A DNA stretch of 64,000 nucleotides from Jiangella gansuensis DSM 44835 (GCF_000515395.1 NZ_KI911782.1:969090-1033089), one strand, 5' to 3'. Positions 19,193 through 61,860 are shown, counted from the stretch's first letter. Program-made: numbers and translations. The notes: generated from the letters alone by a model not told the origin.

Positions 19193-19260
19193 GGCTGTGT
19201 TCGCTCCACCAGGCATGCATGGGTGGTGGAGCGGGTGCACCCATGCCGAACGTGATCATT
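19193..19260. repeat. Dispersed intergenic repeat, family 1, copy B (reverse orientation)
   Basis: Runs from TGTTCGCTCCACC to GAACGTGATCATT. The arms CGCTCCACC and GGTGGAGCG form the central hairpin. It is the reverse complement of copies A, C and D. It lies upstream of the large phosphodiester glycosidase gene. Confidence 0.75.
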
Positions 19261-40702: not shown

Positions 40703-41384
40703 CAGAGCGCGGCATCCCACTGAGACCGTCCGGGCGTGGATCGATCGTCCCGGCCGGATGCGGGTCGAGGGCGAGTCCGGCCGCGTCACGTCGTACGACG
40801 AGTCCCGCCGCGAGCGCACCGACCGGGGCGTCTTCGCGGTCAGTACGGCAGGCTCGAACGGGGCGCCGCCGACGGAGCTCGCGCAGCCTGAGTACCACTT
40901 CCCGCAGGACCCGGACGCGCCGCCACCGGTGCGCCGTCCCGACGGCCTGGTCGCCGCGCGGCCCACGGACTTCTCCGTGATCTACGACGACCCGATGCAC
41001 GTCAACTACCTGTGGGTGGTCATGCTCGACCCGGTCGAGCTGGCCGACGGTGCGCCGCCGGACGGACCCCCGTCGCCCGACGTGCCCGCTCTGGACGTGC
41101 TCGCACTGACCGCCGGGACCCGTGCCGGCCGTCCCACGGTCGAGGCGACCGTGCGCCCGACCCCGTCGTACAGCCCGCGCTGCACCTGCTGCGCCCTGCT
41201 CGACGGAGAGGTGGTCGCTTGGCTCCTGCGCGATGAAGGCGGGCCGGTGCCGCCGCGGCGGGCCTACCCCGACGTCTTCGAGGTCGCGCTGGACACCGGG
41301 ACCGGGATCTGCGTCTGGCTTCGCGAGCTCGGCGGCGACCACGACGGCGCCGGTTTCGACGTCGTCATCGAGGCGGCACGCTGA
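40590..41384 (+). CDS. Hypothetical protein, N-terminus overrun by repeats (possibly 5'-truncated)
   Basis: The frame runs 264 codons from an ATG at the foot of the icd hairpin. Its first about 40 codons are simply the translated CACCTGATC repeat cluster (GRHLIMSVMW, GHLIV), so the true protein probably starts later. The ATG at 40758 (MRVEGESGRVTSYDES) is a candidate. The remainder (about 209 residues) has a beta-rich pattern: FSVIYDDPMHVNYLWVVMLDP, LTAGTRAGRPTVEATVRPTP, RCTCCALLDGEVVAWLL. It resembles actinobacterial LolA-like or hypothetical proteins that begin with a longer N-terminal domain. It ends 20 bases inside the convergent DUF4185 gene. No function assigned; may be a remnant. Confidence 0.5.
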   Translation: MRTDRGSGRHLIMSVMWMPNDQVHFGGETRPHGHLIVRRARHPTETVRAWIDRPGRMRVEGESGRVTSYDESRRERTDRGVFAVSTAGSNGAPPTELAQPEYHFPQDPDAPPPVRRPDGLVAARPTDFSVIYDDPMHVNYLWVVMLDPVELADGAPPDGPPSPDVPALDVLALTAGTRAGRPTVEATVRPTPSYSPRCTCCALLDGEVVAWLLRDEGGPVPPRRAYPDVFEVALDTGTGICVWLRELGGDHDGAGFDVVIEAAR

Positions 41385-42492
41385 GGGACGTGCGCATCAG
41401 CGTGACGTTGTACGGCGCCCACTGGGTCATGGCGAAGTAGAGGTCCGGGCCACTCGACCACGGGTGCAGGAACGCTCCGTACAGCGCCGGGTACTCGCTG
41501 CCGCTGACGATCACCTGCTCGTTGCTCCACGGCCCAGTGGGCCGGGGCGCGTCGCGCAGCACGATGGCCGCGCGGGACTCGTCGAGATACGTCATCAGCC
41601 AGCGGCCGGTGTACTCGTTGTACTGCACTGACAGCTCGCCCACCGTGCCGGCCGCCACCGGCGCGGCCGTGGCTTCGTCCGGCGACCACCCGGAGCCGTT
41701 CCAGTACCGGTACGCGTCCTTGTCCAGGACCTTCCCGGCCGGTACCCGGGCGAGGTGCGCGTCGCCGAACCGGCCGTTCGGCGTGCCGAACAGGTACACG
41801 TGTCCGCCGTGCCGGGCGAAGGCGGCCAGCTGGAACGCGCTGCTCCACTCCGGCGTGTTCGTCCAGACCGCGTCCGGGTCCTTCGTCCACGTCTCGCCGT
41901 TGTCGTCGGAGTAGGCGATGCCCGCGTGGTTGGTGAACCACTGCCCGGGCGGGCCCCAATGGTGCACCGACATGTAGTGCAGGTAGCTGCGGCCGTCGAC
42001 CGTGACGCCCGCGGTGGGGATGACGGTCTCCTCGTCGTTGTTGACCTGCTTGCAGTCGAGCAGCTGCCCGGCGTGGCCGGGCCGGTCCTGGACCATGGTG
42101 TCGAACGTCATGCCGTCGGCGAGGTCGGTGTCGGACGAGCGGGCCAGCACGTTGCATCGCCAGTCGGCGTCGCGCGGCCCGGCGCCGTTGCCGCCCCAGC
42201 CCTCGCCGTAGGTGTCGCCGAACGCCATGAGTACCTCGCCGGCGCCGTTGTCCCAGATGATCCCGAGATCGGTGCCGTGGACCTGGTAGCGGGCGGCGGT
42301 GTGGTTGACGGAGCCGGCGCCGGTGAGGCGTGCGACCGGCACTGCAGGGTCGGCCGTGACCGCGGATGTCGGTTCGGCCCGCGACGGTGCGGGGTTCCGC
42401 TCCGCGTGGGGCACGCCGTCTGAGGCCATCGCGGACGACGCCACCAGCAACAAGGCGACGGCTCCGGTTGCGGCGAGCAGCTGGACTCTCAT
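41365..42492 (-). CDS. Secreted DUF4185 protein, GH183-type endo-D-arabinanase candidate
   Basis: Encodes 375 residues. ATG 42492 has an AGGAGG ribosome site. Residues 1-33 are a signal peptide (QLLAATGAVALLLVASSAMA). The DUF4185 beta-propeller follows: WDNGAGEVLMAFGDTYGEGW near residue 80, WRCNVLARSSDTDLADGMTF, then GIAYSDDNGETWTKDPDAVW, HVYLFGTPNGRFGDAHLARV and ELSVQYNEYTGRWLMTYLDE blades. Members of DUF4185 have been shown to be endo-acting D-arabinofuranases (GH183) that cut mycobacterial-type D-arabinan. Here it has its own AATCGATT operator and lies next to LacI and a GH172 gene. Secretion plus context support a role in releasing arabino-oligosaccharides outside the cell; substrate is inferred, not shown. 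Confidence 0.78.
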   Translation of the reverse strand: MRVQLLAATGAVALLLVASSAMASDGVPHAERNPAPSRAEPTSAVTADPAVPVARLTGAGSVNHTAARYQVHGTDLGIIWDNGAGEVLMAFGDTYGEGWGGNGAGPRDADWRCNVLARSSDTDLADGMTFDTMVQDRPGHAGQLLDCKQVNNDEETVIPTAGVTVDGRSYLHYMSVHHWGPPGQWFTNHAGIAYSDDNGETWTKDPDAVWTNTPEWSSAFQLAAFARHGGHVYLFGTPNGRFGDAHLARVPAGKVLDKDAYRYWNGSGWSPDEATAAPVAAGTVGELSVQYNEYTGRWLMTYLDESRAAIVLRDAPRPTGPWSNEQVIVSGSEYPALYGAFLHPWSSGPDLYFAMTQWAPYNVTLMRTSLSVPPR

Positions 42493-42530
42493 GCGGGCCT
42501 CCTTCGCCGGCGGTGTCGCCAAGCAGGTGA

Positions 42531-42542
42531 GAAATCGATTTC
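42531..42542. promoter_or_regulatory. LacI-type operator 1 (GAAATCGATTTC)
   Basis: Perfect 12-bp palindrome with AATCGATT core (42533-42540), 38 bases upstream of the DUF4185 start. Same core as operators at 43711, 48202 and 48353. Confidence 0.75.
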
Positions 42543-42588
42543 CAGCCTAGAGTCGGTGCGCTGGACCCGTCAACGCCCAGCCCTCCTC

Positions 42589-42646
42589 CCCATGATCATC
42601 GGCATTCGACCCCGCTATGACGGGGTGGATCGCCGATGATCAAGGG
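42589..42646. repeat. Dispersed intergenic palindrome, family 2, copy f
   Basis: Ends CCCATGATCATCGGC and GCCGATGATCAAGGG, with an inner ACCCCG/CGGGGT hairpin. It lies between the lacI stop and the DUF4185 operator, so it probably separates the two transcription units. Confidence 0.8.
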
Positions 42647-42655
42647 AAGAGCGGG

Positions 42656-43654
42656 TCAGCGGCGGGTGGAGCTGGCCCGGATCTGCAGCTCGGTCGGCAG
42701 CACGACGTGGGTGGTGTCGGCGTCGGGCTTGGAGAGCCGTCGGGAGAGCAGCTGCGCCGCCTGCCGCCCGACGTCGTAGGCCGGCTGGGACACCGTGGTC
42801 AGCGTCGGCCGGATGAGGTCGGCCCAGGGGATGGTGTCGAAGCCGACGACGGCGATGTCGGAGGGCACCGTGAGCTCGCGCTGGACCAAGCACTCCATGG
42901 CGCCGACGGTCATCAGGTTGTTGGCCGCGAACAGGGCGTCCGGCGCGGCATCGTCGTCCAGGAGTGAGGCCATTGCGTCGTAGCCGCCCCGTTCGCGGAA
43001 GTCGGCGAACCGGACCAGCGATTCGTCCAGCGGCAGGCCCGCCGCGCCCAGGGCTCGCCGGTAACCGTCGTAGCGGTAGGTGGCGGTGCTGAGCCAGCGG
43101 GGACCGCCGATGCACGCGATGCGCCGGTACCCCTGGTCGATCAGGTGGGCGGTGGCCTGCTCGGCGCCGTGCTCGTTGTCGACGAGGACGGTGTCGGTGC
43201 GCAGGCCGTGCAGTTCGCGGTCGATGACGACCACCGGGCAGCCGGAGTCGAGCAGCAGCTTGACGTCGTCGACCCGGTTGGACGACGGGGAGATGATGAC
43301 GCCGGCCATCTGCTCGCTCAGCGCGGCGAGGATGTAGTTGGACTCCTTCTCCGGGTTCTCGTCGCTGTTGCAGAGCACGACGGAGTACCCGGCGGCCAGT
43401 GCGATGTCCTCGACCCCACGGACCATCGAGGTGAAGAACGGGTTCTCGACGTCGGAGATGATGACGGCCCACAGGCTGGTGCGGCTCTTGCGCAGGTTGC
43501 GGGCGACGGCGTTGCGGCGGTACCCGAGCTCAGAGACCGACGTGGTGACCCGCTCGGCCAGCACGGGGTCGACCTTGGCATGCCCGTTGAGGACGCGCGA
43601 GACCGTCGCCGCGGAGACGCCGGCGTGGCGCGCCACATCGTAGATGGTGACCAC
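42656..43654 (-). CDS. LacI-family transcriptional regulator
   Basis: Encodes 332 residues. GTG start. The N-terminal helix-turn-helix is VTIYDVARHAGVSAATVSRV then LNGHAKVDPVLAERV, with hinge LGYRRNAVARNLR. The sugar-binding domain follows with VIISDVENPFFTSMVRGVED and DALFAANNLMTVGAMECL, plus DIAVVGFDTIPWADLIRPTLT. It sits among the sugar-locus genes, and its own promoter region carries one of the four AATCGATT sites, pointing to autoregulation and control of the whole locus. The inducer is likely the sugar imported or released by the neighbouring genes. Confidence 0.9.
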   Translation of the reverse strand: MVTIYDVARHAGVSAATVSRVLNGHAKVDPVLAERVTTSVSELGYRRNAVARNLRKSRTSLWAVIISDVENPFFTSMVRGVEDIALAAGYSVVLCNSDENPEKESNYILAALSEQMAGVIISPSSNRVDDVKLLLDSGCPVVVIDRELHGLRTDTVLVDNEHGAEQATAHLIDQGYRRIACIGGPRWLSTATYRYDGYRRALGAAGLPLDESLVRFADFRERGGYDAMASLLDDDAAPDALFAANNLMTVGAMECLVQRELTVPSDIAVVGFDTIPWADLIRPTLTTVSQPAYDVGRQAAQLLSRRLSKPDADTTHVVLPTELQIRASSTRR

Positions 43655-43708
43655 CCCGTGCCCCTCTCCTGCACCGTCGACATGGGCCCGATCATCCTAG
43701 ACGATCGT

Positions 43709-43720
43709 GGAATCGATTTC
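43709..43720. promoter_or_regulatory. LacI-type operator 2 (GGAATCGATTTC)
   Basis: AATCGATT core at 43711-43718, 55 bases upstream of the lacI start, in the 182-base gap after the GH172 gene. Consistent with autoregulation. Confidence 0.75.
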
Positions 43721-43836
43721 TCATCGACTTCCGCCCTATGGGCCTCGGCGCACCCCGGTCACTATCCGTCATACACCTCCCGGTCGGCGATGGCGGTGAA
43801 GCTCGCCGAACCGGTCCGGGCAGTGCGGCACATCGG

Positions 43837-44934
43837 TCAGTTCACCTCCATGGTCAGCAGGTCCGGCGCGGGCGGCCGGTTCGGCAGCGACGGCGCGTCC
43901 AGGTAGAACAGCGCGGTCGAGGCGAGGTCGTCGCTGGTGGGCCGGTACCGGTGCGCGAGCCCGTTGTGGTGCCCGGGCCCGATGCCGAGGCTTTGGACGG
44001 TGACCCGGAGGTTCTCGGTGAACCGGATCGGGTCCGGGATGTGCCAGCGGTACATGCCGAAGCGTTGCTGGCTGGCGTAGAGACCGTCCGGTCGCAGCAC
44101 CTGGTTGAGGCCCAGGTACGGCGTGGTGAAGGGGGTGTAGCCCTGCCCCGGGACGTCGAAGTTCCAGGCGCCGCCGAAGTAGTCCTCCGTGCCGGTGCCG
44201 CAGATAGTGGGGAACTCGACGTCACCGTCCAGGAAGAACTTGACCTCGCCCTCGCCCCACCAGCCGGGGTCGTTGGTGGCCCAGGCCAGGTAGGTCCCGA
44301 CGTAGTGGCCGCTGCCCTCGACGCGGTCGAGGATGGTGTGCACCTCGCCGCGCGGCACCGGGTGGCTGCGCCGCCAGTGCGCGTGCAGGTACGACGCGTC
44401 GTCCGCGACGTCGCCGAGCTCGTAGTCGATCTGGTAGTAGAGAACCACCTCTTCGGCGGACACGTTCTCCAGCGTCAGGCGGGCCGAGCGGCGGAACGGC
44501 ATCGGCCAGTAGGCGTTGAAGCCGCCGTTCGGGTTCGCGGCCACGGCCAGTGAGGAGACCTGGCTGAACGTGTTCCAGCCGTTGCAGAAGAGGTCGCCGA
44601 GCGGCACCTCGACGGCCGGCACCTGCTCGCCGTCCCAGTACATCCGCAGGATGGTGCCCCGCCAGGCGCGGTGCGGCGCGGTGGTGCACCAGATGTGCTT
44701 GATCACCCCCGGGCCGCCGATCTCGCCCAGGACCGCGGTCTCGCCGGCCGGGATGTGGATGCTGGGCGAGATCTTCCAGCCCTGGCCGAGGTCGCCGGCC
44801 GCACGGGCGCCGGTGCCCTCGGTCGCCATCCCGCCGCGGCCCTTCTCGCCGGTGGGGTTCTCCGCGCTGATGGAGCGGCTGACGCGGGACGAGCGGCGGG
44901 ACAGGGATTCCAGGCCGATCGGGTCGTCGAGCAA
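43837..44934 (-). CDS. DUF2961/GH172 family glycosidase, exo-D-arabinofuranosidase candidate
   Basis: Encodes 365 residues and no signal peptide, so cytoplasmic. The start is a TTG at 44934, chosen for its strong AAGGAG ribosome site. Landmarks of the family: GEIGGPGVIKHIWCTT near 70, RGTILRMYWDGEQVPAVEVP then LGDLFCNG near 100, NAYWPMPFRRSARLTLEN near 140, and WWGEGEVKFFLDGD and FPTICGTGTEDYFGGAW near 225-257 with conserved Glu residues (Glu250 in GTGTEDYF). GH172 members include difructose-dianhydride enzymes and exo-acting D-arabinofuranosidases. With a DUF4185 partner the latter is more likely. It follows the permease gene by 44 bases and is the last gene of the importer operon. Confidence 0.85.
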   Translation of the reverse strand: MLDDPIGLESLSRRSSRVSRSISAENPTGEKGRGGMATEGTGARAAGDLGQGWKISPSIHIPAGETAVLGEIGGPGVIKHIWCTTAPHRAWRGTILRMYWDGEQVPAVEVPLGDLFCNGWNTFSQVSSLAVAANPNGGFNAYWPMPFRRSARLTLENVSAEEVVLYYQIDYELGDVADDASYLHAHWRRSHPVPRGEVHTILDRVEGSGHYVGTYLAWATNDPGWWGEGEVKFFLDGDVEFPTICGTGTEDYFGGAWNFDVPGQGYTPFTTPYLGLNQVLRPDGLYASQQRFGMYRWHIPDPIRFTENLRVTVQSLGIGPGHHNGLAHRYRPTSDDLASTALFYLDAPSLPNRPPAPDLLTMEVN

Positions 44935-44978
44935 GGTCGTCTCCTTCGTCTAGCTGGTTGTGCGTCACCGGGCGCCGT

Positions 44979-45866
44979 TCACTTCAGGCCCGAGGTCTTG
45001 ATGGACTCCACGATTCTGCGCTGGAAGATGGCGAACGCGATCAGCGTGGGTATCGCCGCGATCGTGGCCGCGGCCAGCACGTACTGCCAGTCGGCGCTGT
45101 TCTGGTCCTGGAAGCTGGCGATGCCCAGCTGCACCACCTGCAGGTCCGAGTCCGTCGTCGCCACCAGGGGCCACAGGAACGCGTTCCAGTTGGCCAGGAA
45201 GAACAGCACGGCCAGCGCGGCGAAGATGGACCGGCTCAGCGGCAGGATGATCGACCAGTAGATGCGCCAGTACCCACAGCCGTCCAGTACCGCCGCCTCC
45301 TCCAGCTCGGCCGGAATGGACAGGTAGAACTGCCGCAGCAGGAAGATGCCGTACGCGCTGAAGATGGCCGGCAGGATCAGCCCGGCGTAGCTGTTGAGCA
45401 GTCCCAGGCGGTGCACCACCAGGAACAGCGGCACCAGCACCACCGGCCCGGTGACCAGCAGGGTCGAGAAGATGCCCAGGAAGATCGCGTCGCGGCCGGG
45501 GAACTTCAGCCGGGCCAGCGCGTAGGCGGCCATGGAGTGGAAGAACAGCGCGGCCACCGTCACCGTCACCGACACCACGAAGCTGTTGAACAGGTACCGG
45601 CCGAACGGGGCGGCGGTGAACACGTAGTCGAAGTTGTCGACGGTGGGGGCCGACGGCAGCAGGTTGGTGCTGAGCACCTCGTCGGCGCCCTTGAACGAGC
45701 TGGTCACCATCCACACCAGCGGGAACACCGTCAGGATGGTGATGACGCCGACGACGACGAAGAGCGTGGAGGACTTCCTGCGCCGCCGGGACATGCGCCG
45801 GCGTGGTTCCGACGAGGCCGCGGCGGACCCGGCCGGACGGGGGAGGGCGGCGGTCTCACTGGGCAT
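44979..45866 (-). CDS. Carbohydrate ABC transporter permease (MalG type)
   Basis: Encodes 295 residues with six predicted membrane helices after a basic cytoplasmic N-terminus (RRRMSRRRRKSSTLFVVVGV). The EAA loop that contacts the ATPase is ELEEAAVLDGCGYWRIYWSI. PLVWMVTSSFKGADE and LLVTGPVVLVPLFLVVHRLG are typical of the CUT1 MalG family. Its ATG overlaps the end of the other permease gene by 11 bases. The ATPase is not in the locus; CUT1 systems commonly share a housekeeping MsiK-type ATPase, which fits. Confidence 0.9.
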   Translation of the reverse strand: MPSETAALPRPAGSAAASSEPRRRMSRRRRKSSTLFVVVGVITILTVFPLVWMVTSSFKGADEVLSTNLLPSAPTVDNFDYVFTAAPFGRYLFNSFVVSVTVTVAALFFHSMAAYALARLKFPGRDAIFLGIFSTLLVTGPVVLVPLFLVVHRLGLLNSYAGLILPAIFSAYGIFLLRQFYLSIPAELEEAAVLDGCGYWRIYWSIILPLSRSIFAALAVLFFLANWNAFLWPLVATTDSDLQVVQLGIASFQDQNSADWQYVLAAATIAAIPTLIAFAIFQRRIVESIKTSGLK

Positions 45867-46833
45867 GGCTGAATCGGCCTCCCTTGGTGACGGCGAACAG
45901 CAGCGCCGACCACGCCAGCAGGATCAGCACGATGAACGACCCGATCGCCGCGGCGTAACCGAACTCCCCGTACACGAATGCCTGTTGGTAGACGTAGTAG
46001 ATGACCAGCGTGGTCGAGTTGGCCGGGCCGCCGCCGGTCAGGATCACCAGCAGGTCCAGGCCGCCGGTCATCACCGCGATCGTCGACGTGAGCAGGATGA
46101 AGAAGCTGGTCGGTTTCAGCAGCGGCCAGGTGATGTTGCGGAACGTCGTCCACGGACCGGCGCCGTCGAGGCTGGCCACCTCGTAGTACTCGCGCGGGAT
46201 GTCCTGGAGACCGGCCAGGAAGATGAGCATGTAGTAGCCCATGGAGAACCAGATCGTGATGATCATGACCGTGGGCAGCGCGAACGTCGGATCGCCCAGC
46301 CACGACGGTGCAGTGAGCCCGACGCGGGCGAGGACCCGGGCGATGAAGCCGACGTCGTCGGTCAGCAGGAACTGCCAGATGAGCGCGACGACGACGAGGC
46401 TGACGACGTTGGGGGCGAACAGCGCGGTGCGGAACAATCCGACCAGCGGGAACTTGTGCCGCACCAGCAGCGCCAGGCCGAGGCCGGACAGGAACAGCCC
46501 GGGCACCAGGACCACCAGGTAGACGAGGGTGCGCCCGAGGCTGGCGAGGAAGTACGGGTCGGCGAACATCCGCTCGAAGTTCGCCAGGCCGACGAAGTCG
46601 TAGCCGCCGAACCCGTCGACGCGGAAGAACGCCAGGATGATGGAGAGCACCATCGGGATCGCGACGAAGATCGTCAGCCCGATGAGGTTGGGGGCCATGA
46701 ACAGATAGGCGGCACGTCGTTCGCGCCGTTCCCGCGCGGTGCGGGTGCTGGCGTCGGGAGTGCCGCCGCCGCGGGCTCGGTGTGCGCCGGCGGGGGCGGT
46801 GGGCTCCGCCGGGCTCGTGGTGGGAGTGCTCAT
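45856..46833 (-). CDS. Carbohydrate ABC transporter permease (MalF type)
   Basis: Encodes 325 residues. After a hydrophilic, Ala/Pro-rich N-terminus there are six helices; AYLFMAPNLIGLTIFVAIPM is the usual first helix of CUT1 MalF-like permeases. The EAA loop is DIPREYYEVASLDGAGPWTT. GGLDLLVILTGGGPANSTTL follows. The ATG at 46833 overlaps the stop of the binding-protein gene (ATGA), so translation is coupled. Forms the membrane channel with the MalG-type partner. Confidence 0.9.
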   Translation of the reverse strand: MSTPTTSPAEPTAPAGAHRARGGGTPDASTRTARERRERRAAYLFMAPNLIGLTIFVAIPMVLSIILAFFRVDGFGGYDFVGLANFERMFADPYFLASLGRTLVYLVVLVPGLFLSGLGLALLVRHKFPLVGLFRTALFAPNVVSLVVVALIWQFLLTDDVGFIARVLARVGLTAPSWLGDPTFALPTVMIITIWFSMGYYMLIFLAGLQDIPREYYEVASLDGAGPWTTFRNITWPLLKPTSFFILLTSTIAVMTGGLDLLVILTGGGPANSTTLVIYYVYQQAFVYGEFGYAAAIGSFIVLILLAWSALLFAVTKGGRFSHAQ

Positions 46834-48185
46834 GCCAGGTCTACCCCCTCGTACGTGGTGAGGTAGGCATCGATGGCCTGCGCCGCGGTGGCCGCCTGGT
46901 CCTCGGGGTCGCCTCCGGCCAGCTGGCAGGACTGGATGGCGTCGGACACCGCCTTGTAGATGACCGGTGGGTAGCGTGGCTCGCCGCGGCCGGTGGGGAA
47001 GATCTCGTCGCGGAACAGGCGCATGTGCTCGCTGTCGTAGCCGCCGGCCTGGCTGCCGTCCTCCAGGCTGCTGCGGCGCGGGGAGATGTCGCGCTTGGCG
47101 TCGGTGCACCAGTTGGCGACCCGGGCGATGCCGTCGTCGTCCATGGAGCCCAGCGCCCAGGCGCAGAACCGGGCCGCTTCGTCCGGGTTGCGGCCCAGCG
47201 CGTTGGCGGCGAAGGCCCAGCCACCCAGGACGGTGGCCGGCTCGCCGCCGTCGGGAACGGGTAGCGGGATGACGCCGTAGTCGAAGTCGGGCGCCTTGCG
47301 TTCGAAGTCCTGGATGGCCCAGATGCCGGTCTGCCAGATGGACGCGTAGCCCTCGCCGAAGGAGGTGACGATGTCGTCGGAGGCCGGTGGGACGCGCGGG
47401 GTGAGGCCCTCCTCGACGGCGTCCTTCCACAGTCGCAGCGCGTTGACGGCGGCCGGGGAGTCGAAGCCGCTGCGGGAGCCGTCGACGACCTCGCCGCCGC
47501 CCTGCCACATCCACGGGTACCAGACGAAGTTCTGGTAGTAGTCCTGCGCGGTCGGGACCACGAACCCGCCCTCTCCGGCCGACAGGAGGCGGTCGGTGAC
47601 GGACAGCAGGTCGTCCCAGGTGGCCGGCAGGTCGCCCTCGGACAGTCCTGCTCGCTGGAACGCCTCGCGGTTGTAGAAGAGCGCCAGCGGCTCGATCTCC
47701 ATGGGCAGGGCATAGACACGGTCGCCCACCATCCGGGTGGCCAGGTTGTCGGGGTAGAAGTCGTCGATGGCCTCCTGGCTCAGATGCGGGGTGAGGTCGG
47801 CCAGGACGTTCCCGTTGAGGTAGCGGGCGATGTCTCCCGGGCTGATCAGGAAGATGTCCGGGCCCTCGCCCGCGGAGAACGCGGTGCCCAGCTTCTGACT
47901 GCCGAGGACGGGCGCGTAGACCAGCTCGATCTGCTGCTCGTTCTCGGCGTTCCAGCGGTCGACGGTGTCCTGCATCCACGCCGCTCGAGCGATGACGACG
48001 GGGTCCTCGTTGGGGGCCGGCGCGTAGAAATTCCAGAACTGCAGCGGTGCGGATGCCGAGGCAGTGCCGCCGCAGCCGCTCAGCATGCTCGGCAGTGCGA
48101 CGGAGCTGGTCAGGCCCGCGGTGAGGCCGAGAAATCGGCGCCGGGACAGCGGCCCGGCGGGGGGTGTCGCAGGGGGAGGTGGCAC
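46830..48185 (-). CDS. ABC transporter sugar-binding lipoprotein (Tat-type)
   Basis: Encodes about 451 residues. GTG 48185 is chosen because it stands six bases after an AGAGGAG ribosome site; longer frames run through the operator. Residues about 14-40 form a twin-arginine lipoprotein signal: SRRRFLGLTAGLTSSVALPS then MLSGCGG, so the mature protein is anchored at Cys. The rest is a CUT1 solute-binding domain (EGPDIFLISPGDIARYLNGN, PMEIEPLALFYNREAFQRAG, GGWAFAANALGRNPDEAARF). First gene of the importer operon. Its ligand is predicted to be a D-arabino-oligosaccharide or related sugar on context. Confidence 0.88.
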   Translation of the reverse strand: MPPPPATPPAGPLSRRRFLGLTAGLTSSVALPSMLSGCGGTASASAPLQFWNFYAPAPNEDPVVIARAAWMQDTVDRWNAENEQQIELVYAPVLGSQKLGTAFSAGEGPDIFLISPGDIARYLNGNVLADLTPHLSQEAIDDFYPDNLATRMVGDRVYALPMEIEPLALFYNREAFQRAGLSEGDLPATWDDLLSVTDRLLSAGEGGFVVPTAQDYYQNFVWYPWMWQGGGEVVDGSRSGFDSPAAVNALRLWKDAVEEGLTPRVPPASDDIVTSFGEGYASIWQTGIWAIQDFERKAPDFDYGVIPLPVPDGGEPATVLGGWAFAANALGRNPDEAARFCAWALGSMDDDGIARVANWCTDAKRDISPRRSSLEDGSQAGGYDSEHMRLFRDEIFPTGRGEPRYPPVIYKAVSDAIQSCQLAGGDPEDQAATAAQAIDAYLTTYEGVDLA

Positions 48186-48199
48186 GGCCACTCCTCTCA

Positions 48200-48211
48200 G
48201 CAATCGATTAC
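48200..48211. promoter_or_regulatory. LacI-type operator 3 (GCAATCGATTAC)
   Basis: AATCGATT core at 48202-48209, immediately upstream of the ribosome site of the binding-protein gene. A repressor here would block the importer/GH172 operon. Confidence 0.75.
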
Positions 48212-48350
48212 TTGCTGTGGCCGAGAGGTTAACCACACGTCACGTGCCGGTCAACACTCTGCACAGGACAAAAGCCGTCATTGCAGGACCATCGCCGTGC
48301 GAGCGGCGGCGCCGTCGTTGACATCGCAGGGGGCCTCACCTAGCGTGTCA

Positions 48351-48362
48351 GCAATCGATTTC
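48351..48362. promoter_or_regulatory. LacI-type operator 4 (GCAATCGATTTC)
   Basis: AATCGATT core at 48353-48360, 34 bases upstream of the isomerase start; shares the wider TCAGCAATCGATT with operator 3. Lies in the divergent promoter region (48186-48393). Confidence 0.78.
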
Positions 48363-48393
48363 TAGATGGTTCGAGAACGATGGGAGTGCCACC

Positions 48394-49803
48394 GTGGCGC
48401 GTATCGGTGTGTTGACGATCTCCGACGGCCGAGACTTCGTCCATCGCGACATCGCGGATTGGGCACGGTCGTCGGAGGATGCCATCGTCACGGCCCTGGA
48501 GGGTGCCGGGCACGAGGTGGTGCGCGCGCCGGAGCTGGTGAGCACCAACGAGCTGGCCACCAGCCAGGCCCGTCTCGTCGCGGAATCGCGCCCGGACCTG
48601 ACCATCTTCAACTACTCCGTCTGGGCCTTCCCGCACTTCTCCATGCTGGCCGCCGACTCCACGCCGGGCCCCCTGGTGCTGCTGTCGAACATCGACCCGG
48701 TGCAGCCGGGCATGGTCGGCATGCTGGCAGCCGGCGGCGCGTTGGACCAGATCGGCCGGGTGCACGGCCGGGTCTGGGGCGACGTCGCCGACCCGGCCAC
48801 ACTGGAACGCCTGCTGGTGCACGTGCGTGCCGCCCAGGCGGTCGGCGGCCTGAGGGGCAGCACGTTCGGCCGGTTCGGTGGCCGCCCGATGGGCATGTAC
48901 ACCGCCGTCGCGAACACCGACCAGTGGCTGTCGACCTTCGGCGTCGATGTCGAGGAGATCGACCAGTGGGAGATCGTGCGGCGGTCCGAGCTGGTGTCGT
49001 CCACCCGGGCCAGGGAAGGCCGGGAATGGCTGGAGAAGCACGCCAACGTCCACTACGACGGCAAGCAGCTCACGCCCGAGGTGCTCGAGCGGCAGATCCG
49101 CTCCTACCACGCCGTCCGAGAGCTCATCGACGAGTGGAACCTCGACTTCTCCGGCATCAAGGGCCAGCCGGAGCTGACCACGCACTTCACCACCATGGAC
49201 ATCACCGAGGCGTTCCTCAACGACCCCTACGACTGGGAGGGTCCGAAGCCGACCCATGTCACGGCGACGGAGTCGGACATGGACGCCGCGCTGACCATGC
49301 AGATCCTCAAGCTGATCTCCGGTGACCCGGTGCTGTTCGCCGACGTGCGGCACTACCACGCCGACCGCGACATCTGGGATCTCGCCAACTCCGGCCAGCA
49401 CGCCACCTGGTACGCCGCCCGCAGCGACGACCCGGCCGAGAACCTGCGCCGGGTTCACCTCTACCCGGAGGTGTTCTTCTTCCCAGCAGGCGGGGCGTCC
49501 GTGCACCACATCGCGGCGCCGGGCGACATGACGCTGGCCCGGCTGACCCGGCACAGCGGCCGCTACCGCATGCAGGTGGTGCGCGGCGCGTTCGAGGACT
49601 ACGGCGACGAGGTCAACGAGTCCTTGGCCCGCCAGTCGACGTTCGAGTGGCCGCACGCGTTCACCCGGATGGAGGTCCCGGCCGACGAGTTCCTGTCCCG
49701 GTTCGGCGCCAACCACATCCACGCCGTCCCGGGCGACTACGTGGCCGAGCTGAAGCAGGTGTGCAGGCTGCTCGACGTCGACTTCGAGCCCCTGGGCCGC
49801 TGA
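48394..49803 (+). CDS. L-fucose/D-arabinose isomerase family protein
   Basis: Encodes 469 residues. GTG start with GGGAG ribosome site. The fold and motifs are those of the L-fucose/L-arabinose isomerase superfamily: FNYSVWAFPHFSMLAA and VLLSNIDPVQPGMVGML near 70-110, MGMYTAVANTDQWLSTFGVD near 165, THVTATESDMDAALTMQILK near 285 with the catalytic Glu/Asp pair, LFADVRHYHADRDIWDLANS and GQHATWYA near 315-335, and a late His-rich strand (GANHIHAVPGDYV). L-fucose isomerase also acts on D-arabinose, giving D-ribulose, which fits this locus. It is shorter than E. coli FucI. It starts a divergent operon with the downstream sugar kinase under operator 4. Confidence 0.85.
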   Translation: MARIGVLTISDGRDFVHRDIADWARSSEDAIVTALEGAGHEVVRAPELVSTNELATSQARLVAESRPDLTIFNYSVWAFPHFSMLAADSTPGPLVLLSNIDPVQPGMVGMLAAGGALDQIGRVHGRVWGDVADPATLERLLVHVRAAQAVGGLRGSTFGRFGGRPMGMYTAVANTDQWLSTFGVDVEEIDQWEIVRRSELVSSTRAREGREWLEKHANVHYDGKQLTPEVLERQIRSYHAVRELIDEWNLDFSGIKGQPELTTHFTTMDITEAFLNDPYDWEGPKPTHVTATESDMDAALTMQILKLISGDPVLFADVRHYHADRDIWDLANSGQHATWYAARSDDPAENLRRVHLYPEVFFFPAGGASVHHIAAPGDMTLARLTRHSGRYRMQVVRGAFEDYGDEVNESLARQSTFEWPHAFTRMEVPADEFLSRFGANHIHAVPGDYVAELKQVCRLLDVDFEPLGR

Positions 49804-49804
49804 T

Positions 49805-49879
49805 GAATGATCACGTCCGGCATCGGTGTTCCCGCTCCACCAGGGATGCTTGCCCAGTGACACGTGAGGACGCCTGGTG
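49805..49879. repeat. Dispersed intergenic repeat, family 1, copy D
   Basis: Begins ATGATCACGTCCGGCATCGG and ends AGGACGCCTGGTG. It fills the gap between the isomerase and kinase genes, and its last part provides the only ribosome-site-like sequence (GTGAGGAC) ahead of the kinase. Confidence 0.8.
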
Positions 49880-51358
49880 ATGAGCGAACTCGTCCTGGGC
49901 ATCGACATCGGGACGGCCAGCAGCAAGGGCGTCCTCGCCACCGTCGACGGCGAGGTGGTCGCCGTCGAGGTCGTGGAGCACGAGACGGCGCGCCCGCGGC
50001 GGGGCTGGGTCGAGCACGACGCCGACGGCGTGTGGTGGTCCGACGTGTGCGAGCTCAGCCGCAGGCTGACCGGAGCCGTCGACGCAGCCCGTATCCAGGC
50101 CGTCTGCGTCAGCGGCATCGGCCCGACGGTGCTGGCCGCGGACGCCGACGGCGTACCGCTGCGGCCGGCCATCCTGTACGGCGTCGACACCCGAGCCGTC
50201 GGGGAAGCCGCCGAGCTGTCGGCGCGGCTGGGCGACGACGCCGTCCTCGACCGGTGCGGTTCGCGGCTGTCGTCGCAGTCGGCCGGGCCCAAGCTGGCCT
50301 GGCTGCGCCGCCACGAGCCCGAGGTGTGGGCACGCACCCGCTACTTCTTCATGGCCAACAGCTACGTCGTCCACCGGCTGACGGGGCAGTACGTGCTGGA
50401 CCACCACTCGGCCAACCAGGCGCAGCCGCTGTACGACCGGCGCCGCGGCGAGTGGATCGAGGAGTGGGCCGACGTCGTCGCGCCCGGGCTGGAGCTCCCG
50501 CGGCTGCTCTGGCCGGCCGAGATCGCCGGCACCGTCACCGCCGACGCCGCGGCCGTCACCGGGTTGCGGGCCGGCACGCCGGTCGCCGCCGGGACCATCG
50601 ACGCCTGGGCGGAGGCCGAGAGCGTCGATGTTCGGCACCCCGGCGACGTCATGATCATGTACGGCTCCACGATGTTCTTCATCGCGGTCACGTCCGCACC
50701 GGTCGCCGCCGCCAACCTGTGGGGCACCGTCGGCCAGCACGCCGGCCTGCACACCCTTGCCGGCGGCATGGCCAGCTCCGGCTCCGTCACCGGCTGGTTC
50801 CGATCGCTCACGGGGGACCGGCCGTACGAGTCGCTGGTCGCGGACGCGGCCGCCGTCGGTGCCGGTGCCGACGGGCTGCTCGCGCTGCCGTACTTCGACG
50901 GCGAGCGCACGCCGTTCGCCGACCCCGACGCGCGCGGCGTCATCGCGGGCCTCACCCTGCGGCACGGCCCGGGCCACGTCTACCGTGCGCTGCTGGAGGC
51001 GACCGCGTTCGGCGTGCGGCACAACCTGGAGGCCTTCGCGGCCGCCGGGGTGACGCCGTCGCGCGTAGTCGCCGTGGGCGGCGGCACCAAGGGCGACCTG
51101 TGGACCCGCATCGTCAGCAGCGTCGCCGGCGTGACGCAGGAGGTGCCGGCGGTCACGGTTGGTGCGTCCTACGGCGACGCCAAGTTGGCCGCCGTCGCCG
51201 TCGGAGCCGCCGAGCGGGATACCCGGTGGAGCGGCGGCGGCATCACCGTCGAGCCCGACCCAGCCGACGCGGCGCGGTACGACAAGCTCTACCCCCTGTA
51301 CCGAAGCCTGCACGAGCGGACCAGCGACATCCAGCACGCACTGGCCACCAGAGCGTGA
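49880..51358 (+). CDS. FGGY-family carbohydrate kinase (D-ribulokinase/xylulokinase type)
   Basis: Encodes 492 residues. ATG 49880 directly follows a GTG in the same frame. The ATPase-fold phosphate loops are LVLGIDIGTASSKGVLATVD at the N-terminus and VVAVGGGTKGDLWTRIVSS near 400. YFDGERTPFADPDARGVIAG near 340 is the family sugar/ATP segment. VCVSGIGPTVLAADADG and RPAILYGVDTRA are typical of xylulokinase/ribulokinase relatives. It would phosphorylate the ketopentose made by the isomerase, giving D-ribulose 5-phosphate if the sugar is D-arabinose, and hand it to the pentose phosphate pathway. It is 76 bases after the isomerase, across the repeat. Confidence 0.88.
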   Translation: MSELVLGIDIGTASSKGVLATVDGEVVAVEVVEHETARPRRGWVEHDADGVWWSDVCELSRRLTGAVDAARIQAVCVSGIGPTVLAADADGVPLRPAILYGVDTRAVGEAAELSARLGDDAVLDRCGSRLSSQSAGPKLAWLRRHEPEVWARTRYFFMANSYVVHRLTGQYVLDHHSANQAQPLYDRRRGEWIEEWADVVAPGLELPRLLWPAEIAGTVTADAAAVTGLRAGTPVAAGTIDAWAEAESVDVRHPGDVMIMYGSTMFFIAVTSAPVAAANLWGTVGQHAGLHTLAGGMASSGSVTGWFRSLTGDRPYESLVADAAAVGAGADGLLALPYFDGERTPFADPDARGVIAGLTLRHGPGHVYRALLEATAFGVRHNLEAFAAAGVTPSRVVAVGGGTKGDLWTRIVSSVAGVTQEVPAVTVGASYGDAKLAAVAVGAAERDTRWSGGGITVEPDPADAARYDKLYPLYRSLHERTSDIQHALATRA

Positions 51359-61788: not shown

Positions 61789-61860
61789 CAGGCGTCCTCC
61801 CGCTCCACCGGGCAAGCATTCATGGTGGAGCGGGAGGACCCGTGCCGGACGTGATCATTT
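61789..61860. repeat. Dispersed intergenic repeat, family 1, copy E (reverse orientation)
   Basis: Begins CCAGGCGTCCTCCCGCTCCACC and ends GGACGTGATCATTT with the stem TCCTCCCGCTCCACC / GGTGGAGCGGGAGGA intact over 15 bp. It lies between pgm (ends 61886) and the gal regulator. Confidence 0.85.

What the first reader, a model, noticed from the sequence alone, without database searches (positions are those of the whole stretch)
41365..51358. Complete candidate D-arabinan scavenging locus (GH183 + GH172 + importer + isomerase + kinase)
Seen: a signal-peptide DUF4185 protein, a signal-less DUF2961 protein, a Tat lipoprotein binding protein with two CUT1 permeases, an L-fucose-isomerase-family enzyme, an FGGY kinase and a LacI regulator, contiguous and sharing operators. 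Established knowledge: DUF4185 founded GH183 (endo-D-arabinofuranases), GH172 (DUF2961) includes exo-D-arabinofuranosidases, and L-fucose isomerases convert D-arabinose to D-ribulose. Inference: secreted GH183 cuts D-arabinan from mycobacterial-type cell walls, oligosaccharides are imported, GH172 releases D-arabinose, and the isomerase and kinase give D-ribulose 5-phosphate. A self-contained, regulated pathway of this composition would explain how soil actinomycetes feed on, or remodel, arabinogalactan.
Basis: partly seen in the sequence, partly recalled or inferred. Interest (0 to 1): 0.92.

Follow-up and report, generated by a model that had tools for sequence, protein, structure and literature searches.

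The report
D-arabinan-eating gene set in Jiangella
This soil bacterium carries a gene set, of a kind first described in 2023, for cutting up and eating the unusual sugar chain (D-arabinan) of mycobacterial cell walls; the enzyme that seems to be missing from it sits 0.9 million bases away next to the same DNA switch, so the set is split in two rather than complete in one place.

Summary
The host is Jiangella gansuensis. The DUF4185 protein is 52% identical to the solved endo-D-arabinanase EndoMA1, all catalytic residues kept. The DUF2961 protein is 62% identical to exo-alpha-D-arabinofuranosidase ExoMA1 and has the Asn that excludes fructosides. The host has no Emb arabinosyltransferase, so feeding is likelier than wall remodelling. 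The pathway and cluster type were published in 2023 (PMC10509167, PMC10115798): a new member of a known kind.

"Complete" and "self-contained" are wrong. The exo-beta-D-arabinofuranosidase (GH116) and a transporter ATPase are not in this locus. The genome's only GH116 lies 0.89 Mb away beside a CUT2 sugar importer and a secreted GH172. The operator palindrome GNAATCGATTNC occurs exactly six times in the genome: four here, two at that second locus. It is strongly enriched in related actinomycete loci, including published-type clusters.

The isomerase is a short, divergent subfamily of the fucose/D-arabinose isomerases; in related cassettes a very different isomerase sits beside the same kinase. 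The route D-arabinose to D-ribulose to D-ribulose 5-phosphate is well supported by context but not assayed.

The parts
41365..42492 (-). GH183 (DUF4185) secreted endo-D-arabinanase, Sec-type signal peptide (by eye); ORF opens at TTG 42522, likely start ATG 42492
42531..42542 (.). operator GAAATCGATTTC before GH183
42580..42655 (-). strong hairpin between LacI and GH183 genes, probable terminator
   Evidence: z -7.9
42656..43654 (-). LacI-family regulator
43709..43720 (.). operator GGAATCGATTTC before LacI
43837..44934 (-). GH172 (DUF2961) cytosolic exo-alpha-D-arabinofuranosidase, no signal peptide seen
44979..45866 (-). CUT1 ABC permease (MalG/UgpE type)
45856..46833 (-). CUT1 ABC permease (MalF type)
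46830..48191 (-). solute-binding protein, Tat lipoprotein motif; ORF opens at GTG 48236, likely start GTG 48191 or 48185
48200..48211 (.). operator GCAATCGATTAC before the binding protein
48351..48362 (.). operator GCAATCGATTTC before the isomerase; 18 bp around it identical to the site before the distant GH116
48394..49803 (+). short fucose/D-arabinose-isomerase-family enzyme, Mn ligands E293, D317, H441
49877..51358 (+). FGGY pentulose kinase, predicted D-ribulokinase

Best explanation
This is half of a two-locus, LacI-controlled D-arabinan utilisation regulon of Jiangella gansuensis. Secreted GH183 cuts the alpha-D-arabinan of mycobacterial-type arabinogalactan or lipoarabinomannan into oligosaccharides. 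The CUT1 binding protein and permeases, presumably with a shared ATPase encoded elsewhere, import them, and cytosolic GH172 releases D-arabinose from alpha linkages. The isomerase and kinase convert D-arabinose to D-ribulose and D-ribulose 5-phosphate, which enters the pentose phosphate pathway. The second locus at genome position 1.9036-1.9156 Mb adds an apparently exported GH116 that removes terminal beta-D-arabinofuranose, a secreted multidomain GH172, and a complete CUT2 monosaccharide importer, so arabinose freed outside the cell can also be taken up. The LacI protein at 42656-43654 represses both loci through GNAATCGATTNC until D-arabinose or a derivative is present. SHOWN by sequence: gene content, catalytic and specificity residues, operator distribution, co-location in related genomes. 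INFERRED: enzyme activities, transport substrates, LacI binding and its inducer, carbon use. The host lacks Emb, so the role is feeding on other bacteria's walls rather than remodelling its own.
For: GH183 and GH172 are 52% and 62% identical to assayed, solved enzymes with substrate and catalytic residues kept. The genome's only GH116 keeps E431, H446, R483 and D557 of exo-beta-D-arabinofuranosidase ExoMA2, including the two residues that differ in beta-glucosidases. The operator occurs six times in 5.59 Mb, all at these two loci, reversed-pattern control 0. In 10 Jiangellaceae genomes 57 of 75 operator sites lie within 6 kb of isomerase, GH116, GH183 or GH172 genes, although those stretches cover at most 2.3% of any genome. 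The two-operator GH116 locus is conserved in other Jiangella (L170, L171). In Nonomuraea sediminis (L037) the locus-B genes, isomerase and kinase form one locus; in Thermoactinospora rubra (L038) GH116, GH183 x2, GH172, CUT1, LacI, isomerase and kinase do. 57 of 80 genomic loci of this isomerase have GH172, GH183 or GH116 close by. No Emb (positive control rings in Corynebacterium glutamicum). No class II aldolase in either locus, which fits a 5-phosphate route. The published cluster is induced by D-arabinose (PMC10509167).
Against: No activity, binding or growth data exist for this organism. The isomerase is only about 20% identical to characterised isomerases, and FucI Gln300 is an invariant Lys256 in its subfamily, so its sugar is not settled by sequence. 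The second GH172 has Tyr where ExoMA1 has the specificity Asn, so its substrate may differ. AATCGATT-type palindromes are common LacI-family operators, so a LacI paralog elsewhere could bind the distant sites. GH183 enzymes also cut D-arabinofuranan in other glycans such as Pseudomonas pilin (PMC10115798), so the natural substrate need not be mycobacterial wall.
Confidence: 0.86

Rival explanations
1. The enzymes act on D-arabinan, but the two loci are separate systems: locus A for arabinan oligosaccharides, locus B (GH116, CUT2, second GH172) for another furanoside, and the shared palindrome is bound by different LacI paralogs.
For: The locus-B GH172 lacks the ExoMA1 Asn and is closest to 4kq7/8ah3. 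LacI-family operators are often alike (established knowledge). Some operator sites in Jiangellaceae lie at other genes (18 of 75).
Against: Only six sites in the genome, all at the two loci; 18 bp identical before isomerase and GH116; locus-B genes joined with the isomerase and kinase in Nonomuraea, Actinoallomurus and Pseudonocardiales loci; GH116 keeps the D-arabinose-specific residues.
Confidence: 0.08
2. Catabolism of L-fucose or another sugar of like configuration is the main role of the isomerase and kinase; the arabinan enzymes are secondary.
For: [quoted passage not shown] Gln300 of FucI is replaced by Lys.
Against: No class II (fuculose-phosphate) aldolase in either locus; best profile and fold match is a D-arabinose isomerase; 57 of 80 loci of this isomerase lie next to GH172, GH183 or GH116; a different isomerase occupies the same slot beside the same kinase in published-type arabinan clusters.
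Confidence: 0.04
3. Remodelling or recycling of the host's own cell-wall arabinan.
For: Mycobacteria use GH183 in this way (PMC10115798).
Against: No Emb arabinosyltransferase in the 99.9% complete genome, positive control present; the locus includes a full import and catabolic route.
Confidence: 0.02

Closest known systems
D-arabinan-degradation PUL of Microbacterium arabinogalactanolyticum (EndoMA1/EndoMA2 GH183, ExoMA1 GH172, ExoMA2 GH116; PMC10509167)
   Same: Same enzyme families (GH183, GH172, GH116), sugar ABC importer with SBP_bac_8-type binding protein, a putative isomerase and kinase, same proposed pathway. Published-type actinobacterial clusters found here (L159, L162) also carry the same operator.
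   Different: In Jiangella the set is split over two loci 0.89 Mb apart; one GH183 instead of four and without the CBM; GH116 and a second GH172 appear exported rather than cytosolic; a CUT2 importer is added; the isomerase is of another, shorter subfamily than in L159/L162. The paper's text mentions no operator or regulator.
Dysgonomonas gadei PUL42 (PMC10115798)
   Different: A Bacteroidota polysaccharide utilisation locus, not an actinobacterial LacI/ABC-importer layout.
Bacillus pallidus D-arabinose isomerase (PDB 3a9r) and L-fucose isomerases (1fui, 6k1f)
   Same: Fold (TM 0.75 by query length) and all three metal ligands.
   Different: About 20% identity, 469 instead of about 590 residues, Gln300 replaced by invariant Lys256.

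Membership tests
GH183 endo-D-arabinanase | DUF4185 domain with the two catalytic Asp and the supporting Arg and Glu | tested here: met
   PF13810 420 bits; D85, D103, R251, E296 aligned to EndoMA1 D33, D51, R198, E243
GH183 endo-D-arabinanase | endo-D-arabinanase activity on AG or LAM | not testable with these tools
   needs enzyme assay
GH172 exo-alpha-D-arabinofuranosidase (ExoMA1 type) | DUF2961 with the catalytic carboxylates and Asn253 in place of the Gly of fructofuranosidase alphaFFase1 | tested here: met
   62% identity; E228, E230, E250, D251, N258
Actinobacterial D-arabinan PUL | GH183, GH172, sugar ABC importer, isomerase and kinase together | tested here: met
Actinobacterial D-arabinan PUL | GH116 exo-beta-D-arabinofuranosidase within the cluster | tested here: not met
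   absent from the window locus; the genome's only GH116 is 0.89 Mb away beside the same operator and matches ExoMA2 at its active-site residues
Actinobacterial D-arabinan PUL | induction by D-arabinose or mycobacterial cell-wall extract | not testable with these tools
   needs expression measurements
L-fucose/D-arabinose isomerase family | fold and Mn ligands Glu337, Asp361, His528 | tested here: met
   E293, D317, H441; Foldseek best 3a9r E 1e-24
L-fucose isomerase equivalog (TIGR01089) | score above the curated cut-off | tested here: not met
   68 of 850 bits; FucI Gln300 is Lys256
FGGY D-ribulokinase | phosphorylates D-ribulose at O5 | not testable with these tools
   FGGY domains present, below all curated equivalog cut-offs
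Own-wall arabinan remodelling (mycobacterial type) | host makes D-arabinan (Emb arabinosyltransferase) | tested here: not met
   PF04602 absent, positive control present

The most novel reading that the evidence does not exclude
The palindrome GNAATCGATTNC marks a D-arabinan/D-arabinose regulon shared across several actinomycete orders, whose members combine two supply routes (CUT1 import of oligosaccharides with cytosolic exo-enzymes; exported GH116/GH172 with CUT2 import of free D-arabinose) and an uncharacterised short D-arabinose isomerase subfamily that is exchanged for another isomerase type in some lineages. Searching for this operator would reveal D-arabinan feeders and their unassigned hydrolases.
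Probability: 0.5. Interest if true: 0.55.

Novelty: new member of a known kind. Interest (0 to 1): 0.42.

Why it matters
It extends an experimentally characterised D-arabinan pathway to a soil and desert actinomycete that lacks Emb, and shows that the pathway can be split into two loci that appear to be held together by one operator. The operator gives a cheap genome-wide handle for finding further D-arabinan enzymes, which are useful tools on mycobacterial arabinogalactan and lipoarabinomannan. The short isomerase subfamily and the two-importer layout are directly testable.

Tried and rejected
Own-wall remodelling: rejected on absence of Emb. Fructofuranosidase reading of GH172: rejected on N258 and on 476 bits to ExoMA1 against 148 to alphaFFase1. 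L-fucose catabolism: disfavoured, no class II aldolase in either locus. The first mapping of ExoMA2 residues was off by four because the PDB chain index differs from the paper's numbering; it was redone with the offset that fits all four residues. Paper searches for work after 2023 on GH183/GH116 found nothing closer. Promoter scanning and RNA-family search were not run because nothing depended on them. One paper look-up failed on a term with commas and was repeated.

Full report
WHAT IS THERE. The window lies in a 5,585,780-base single-contig genome. That length equals the published genome of Jiangella gansuensis YIM 002 (PMC5292007), and the nearest named relatives of its isomerase are other Jiangella species. 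On the minus strand, outwards from the divergent centre at 48.2-48.4 kb: binding protein, two CUT1 permeases, GH172; then LacI; then GH183 behind a strong hairpin. On the plus strand: isomerase and kinase. Starts were adjusted for GH183 (ATG 42492) and the binding protein (GTG 48191 or 48185).

ENZYME IDENTITIES. GH183 is 52% identical to EndoMA1, and the residues reported as catalytic or substrate-binding in the EndoMA1 complex that were checked are all kept (PMC10509167). The isomerase is a 469-residue, divergent member of the fucose/D-arabinose isomerase family. Its best profile match and its best fold match are both the D-arabinose isomerase 3a9r (model pLDDT 75). The three Mn ligands are kept (E293, D317, H441), but FucI Gln300 is an invariant Lys. 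The kinase is an FGGY kinase outside all curated equivalogs.

NOT SELF-CONTAINED. The D-arabinan of AG and LAM ends in beta-linked arabinose, which in the published system needs a GH116 enzyme (PMC10509167). There is none in this locus. The genome has exactly one GH116, at 1.906 Mb. It carries an RRAFIALSAVG Tat-like N-terminus (by eye), matches ExoMA2 best (E 2e-69, next GH116 1e-16), and keeps E431, H446, R483 and D557. It is followed by a CobW-type GTPase, a CUT2 ATPase, permease and binding protein, and a secreted 1066-residue GH172. A genome-wide search for the operator seen in the window found six sites: four in the window locus, one before this GH116 and one before the CUT2 genes (sites read). 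The stretch GTGTCAGCAATCGATTTC is identical before the isomerase and before GH116.

COMPARATIVE EVIDENCE. In ten Jiangellaceae genomes 57 of 75 operator sites are within 6 kb of isomerase, GH116, GH183 or GH172 genes, where at most 2.3% of sites would be expected by coverage. The GH116/CUT2/GH172 locus with its two operators is conserved in other Jiangella (L170, L171). Of 80 public genomic loci encoding the isomerase, 57 have GH172, GH183 or GH116 nearby; several contigs are cut short, so this is a lower bound. Nonomuraea sediminis (L037) joins the locus-B genes with the isomerase and kinase; Thermoactinospora rubra (L038) holds GH116, two GH183, GH172, CUT1, LacI, isomerase and kinase together. 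Starting instead from GH172 across 395 Actinomycetes genomes, two clusters of the published type (L159, L162; organisms unnamed) carry GH183, GH172, GH116, CUT1, LacI, the same kinase and four copies of the same operator each. Outside Jiangellaceae the operator count is 59 in 72 isomerase loci and 11 in 8 GH172 loci; the reversed control gives 0 and other palindromes of equal composition 0-2.

ISOMERASE SWAP. In L158 a cassette with GH172, binding protein and permeases of the window type has, next to the same kinase, a different roughly 545-residue isomerase; the same type is in L159 and L162 (57-78 bits to the window enzyme), and the L159 copy shows only sub-threshold matches to the fucose isomerase domains. 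Two isomerase types in one slot with a constant kinase point to the same reaction, D-arabinose to D-ribulose. This is inference.

MECHANISM. As in Best explanation. Gene content, residues and operator distribution are shown; activities, transport and LacI control are inferred. Emb is absent (positive control present), so scavenging fits and remodelling does not. No class II aldolase lies in either locus, which fits a 5-phosphate route.

NOVELTY. The pathway, the gene-cluster type and its occurrence in other Actinobacteria are published (PMC10509167 Fig. 9 and Discussion; PMC10115798). The split into two loci, the shared operator, the second importer and the short isomerase subfamily are additions not found in the text of those papers (for operator and regulator terms). 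I therefore file it as a new member of a known kind, with a moderate interest score.

Noticed in passing
G000:C1:1903615-1915551 (L011:8616-17001, L012:2189-7551): Second locus of the regulon: exported GH116, CobW-type GTPase, CUT2 ABC importer, secreted 1066-aa GH172 with Tyr at the ExoMA1 Asn253 position; this GH172 is closer to 4kq7/8ah3 than to ExoMA1, so its substrate is open.
   Followed up: yes
L011:12420-13559: A CobW/G3E-type GTPase overlaps the end of the GH116 gene and is conserved there in other Jiangella and near it in Nonomuraea (L037); why a metallochaperone-like GTPase travels with an arabinofuranosidase is unexplained.
   Followed up: partly
L011:8659-12423, residues about 290-660: GH116 carries long inserts between its N-terminal and catalytic domains with two similar segments (PDIVFEDWERDTYAPWTASGTAFG and PDVIIEDWERTTYAPWTASGTAFG) that look like carbohydrate-binding modules; not named by Pfam.
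   Followed up: no
window 49825-49849 (-), 61816-61840 (+), 19239-19256; L011:8002 and 8515: Dispersed, partly palindromic intergenic repeat (GCATCCCTGGTGGAGCGGGAGGACC, often followed by ATGCCGAACGTGATCATTT); one copy lies between the isomerase and kinase genes.
   Followed up: partly
G005:C4:2143611-2144397: In one Jiangella relative the GH183 of this locus is split into two frames, suggesting a broken copy, while other GH183 genes remain elsewhere in that genome.
   Followed up: no
L033, L034: Some Jiangellaceae keep only LacI, isomerase and kinase at this place without GH183 or GH172 nearby: the arabinan module comes and goes around a stable D-arabinose core.
   Followed up: partly
L054, L058, L062, L063, L071, L076 (Nocardia): Nocardia, which have D-arabinan in their own walls, carry the same isomerase beside a LacI gene and a CUT2 importer, which could mean recycling of wall arabinose.
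   Followed up: no
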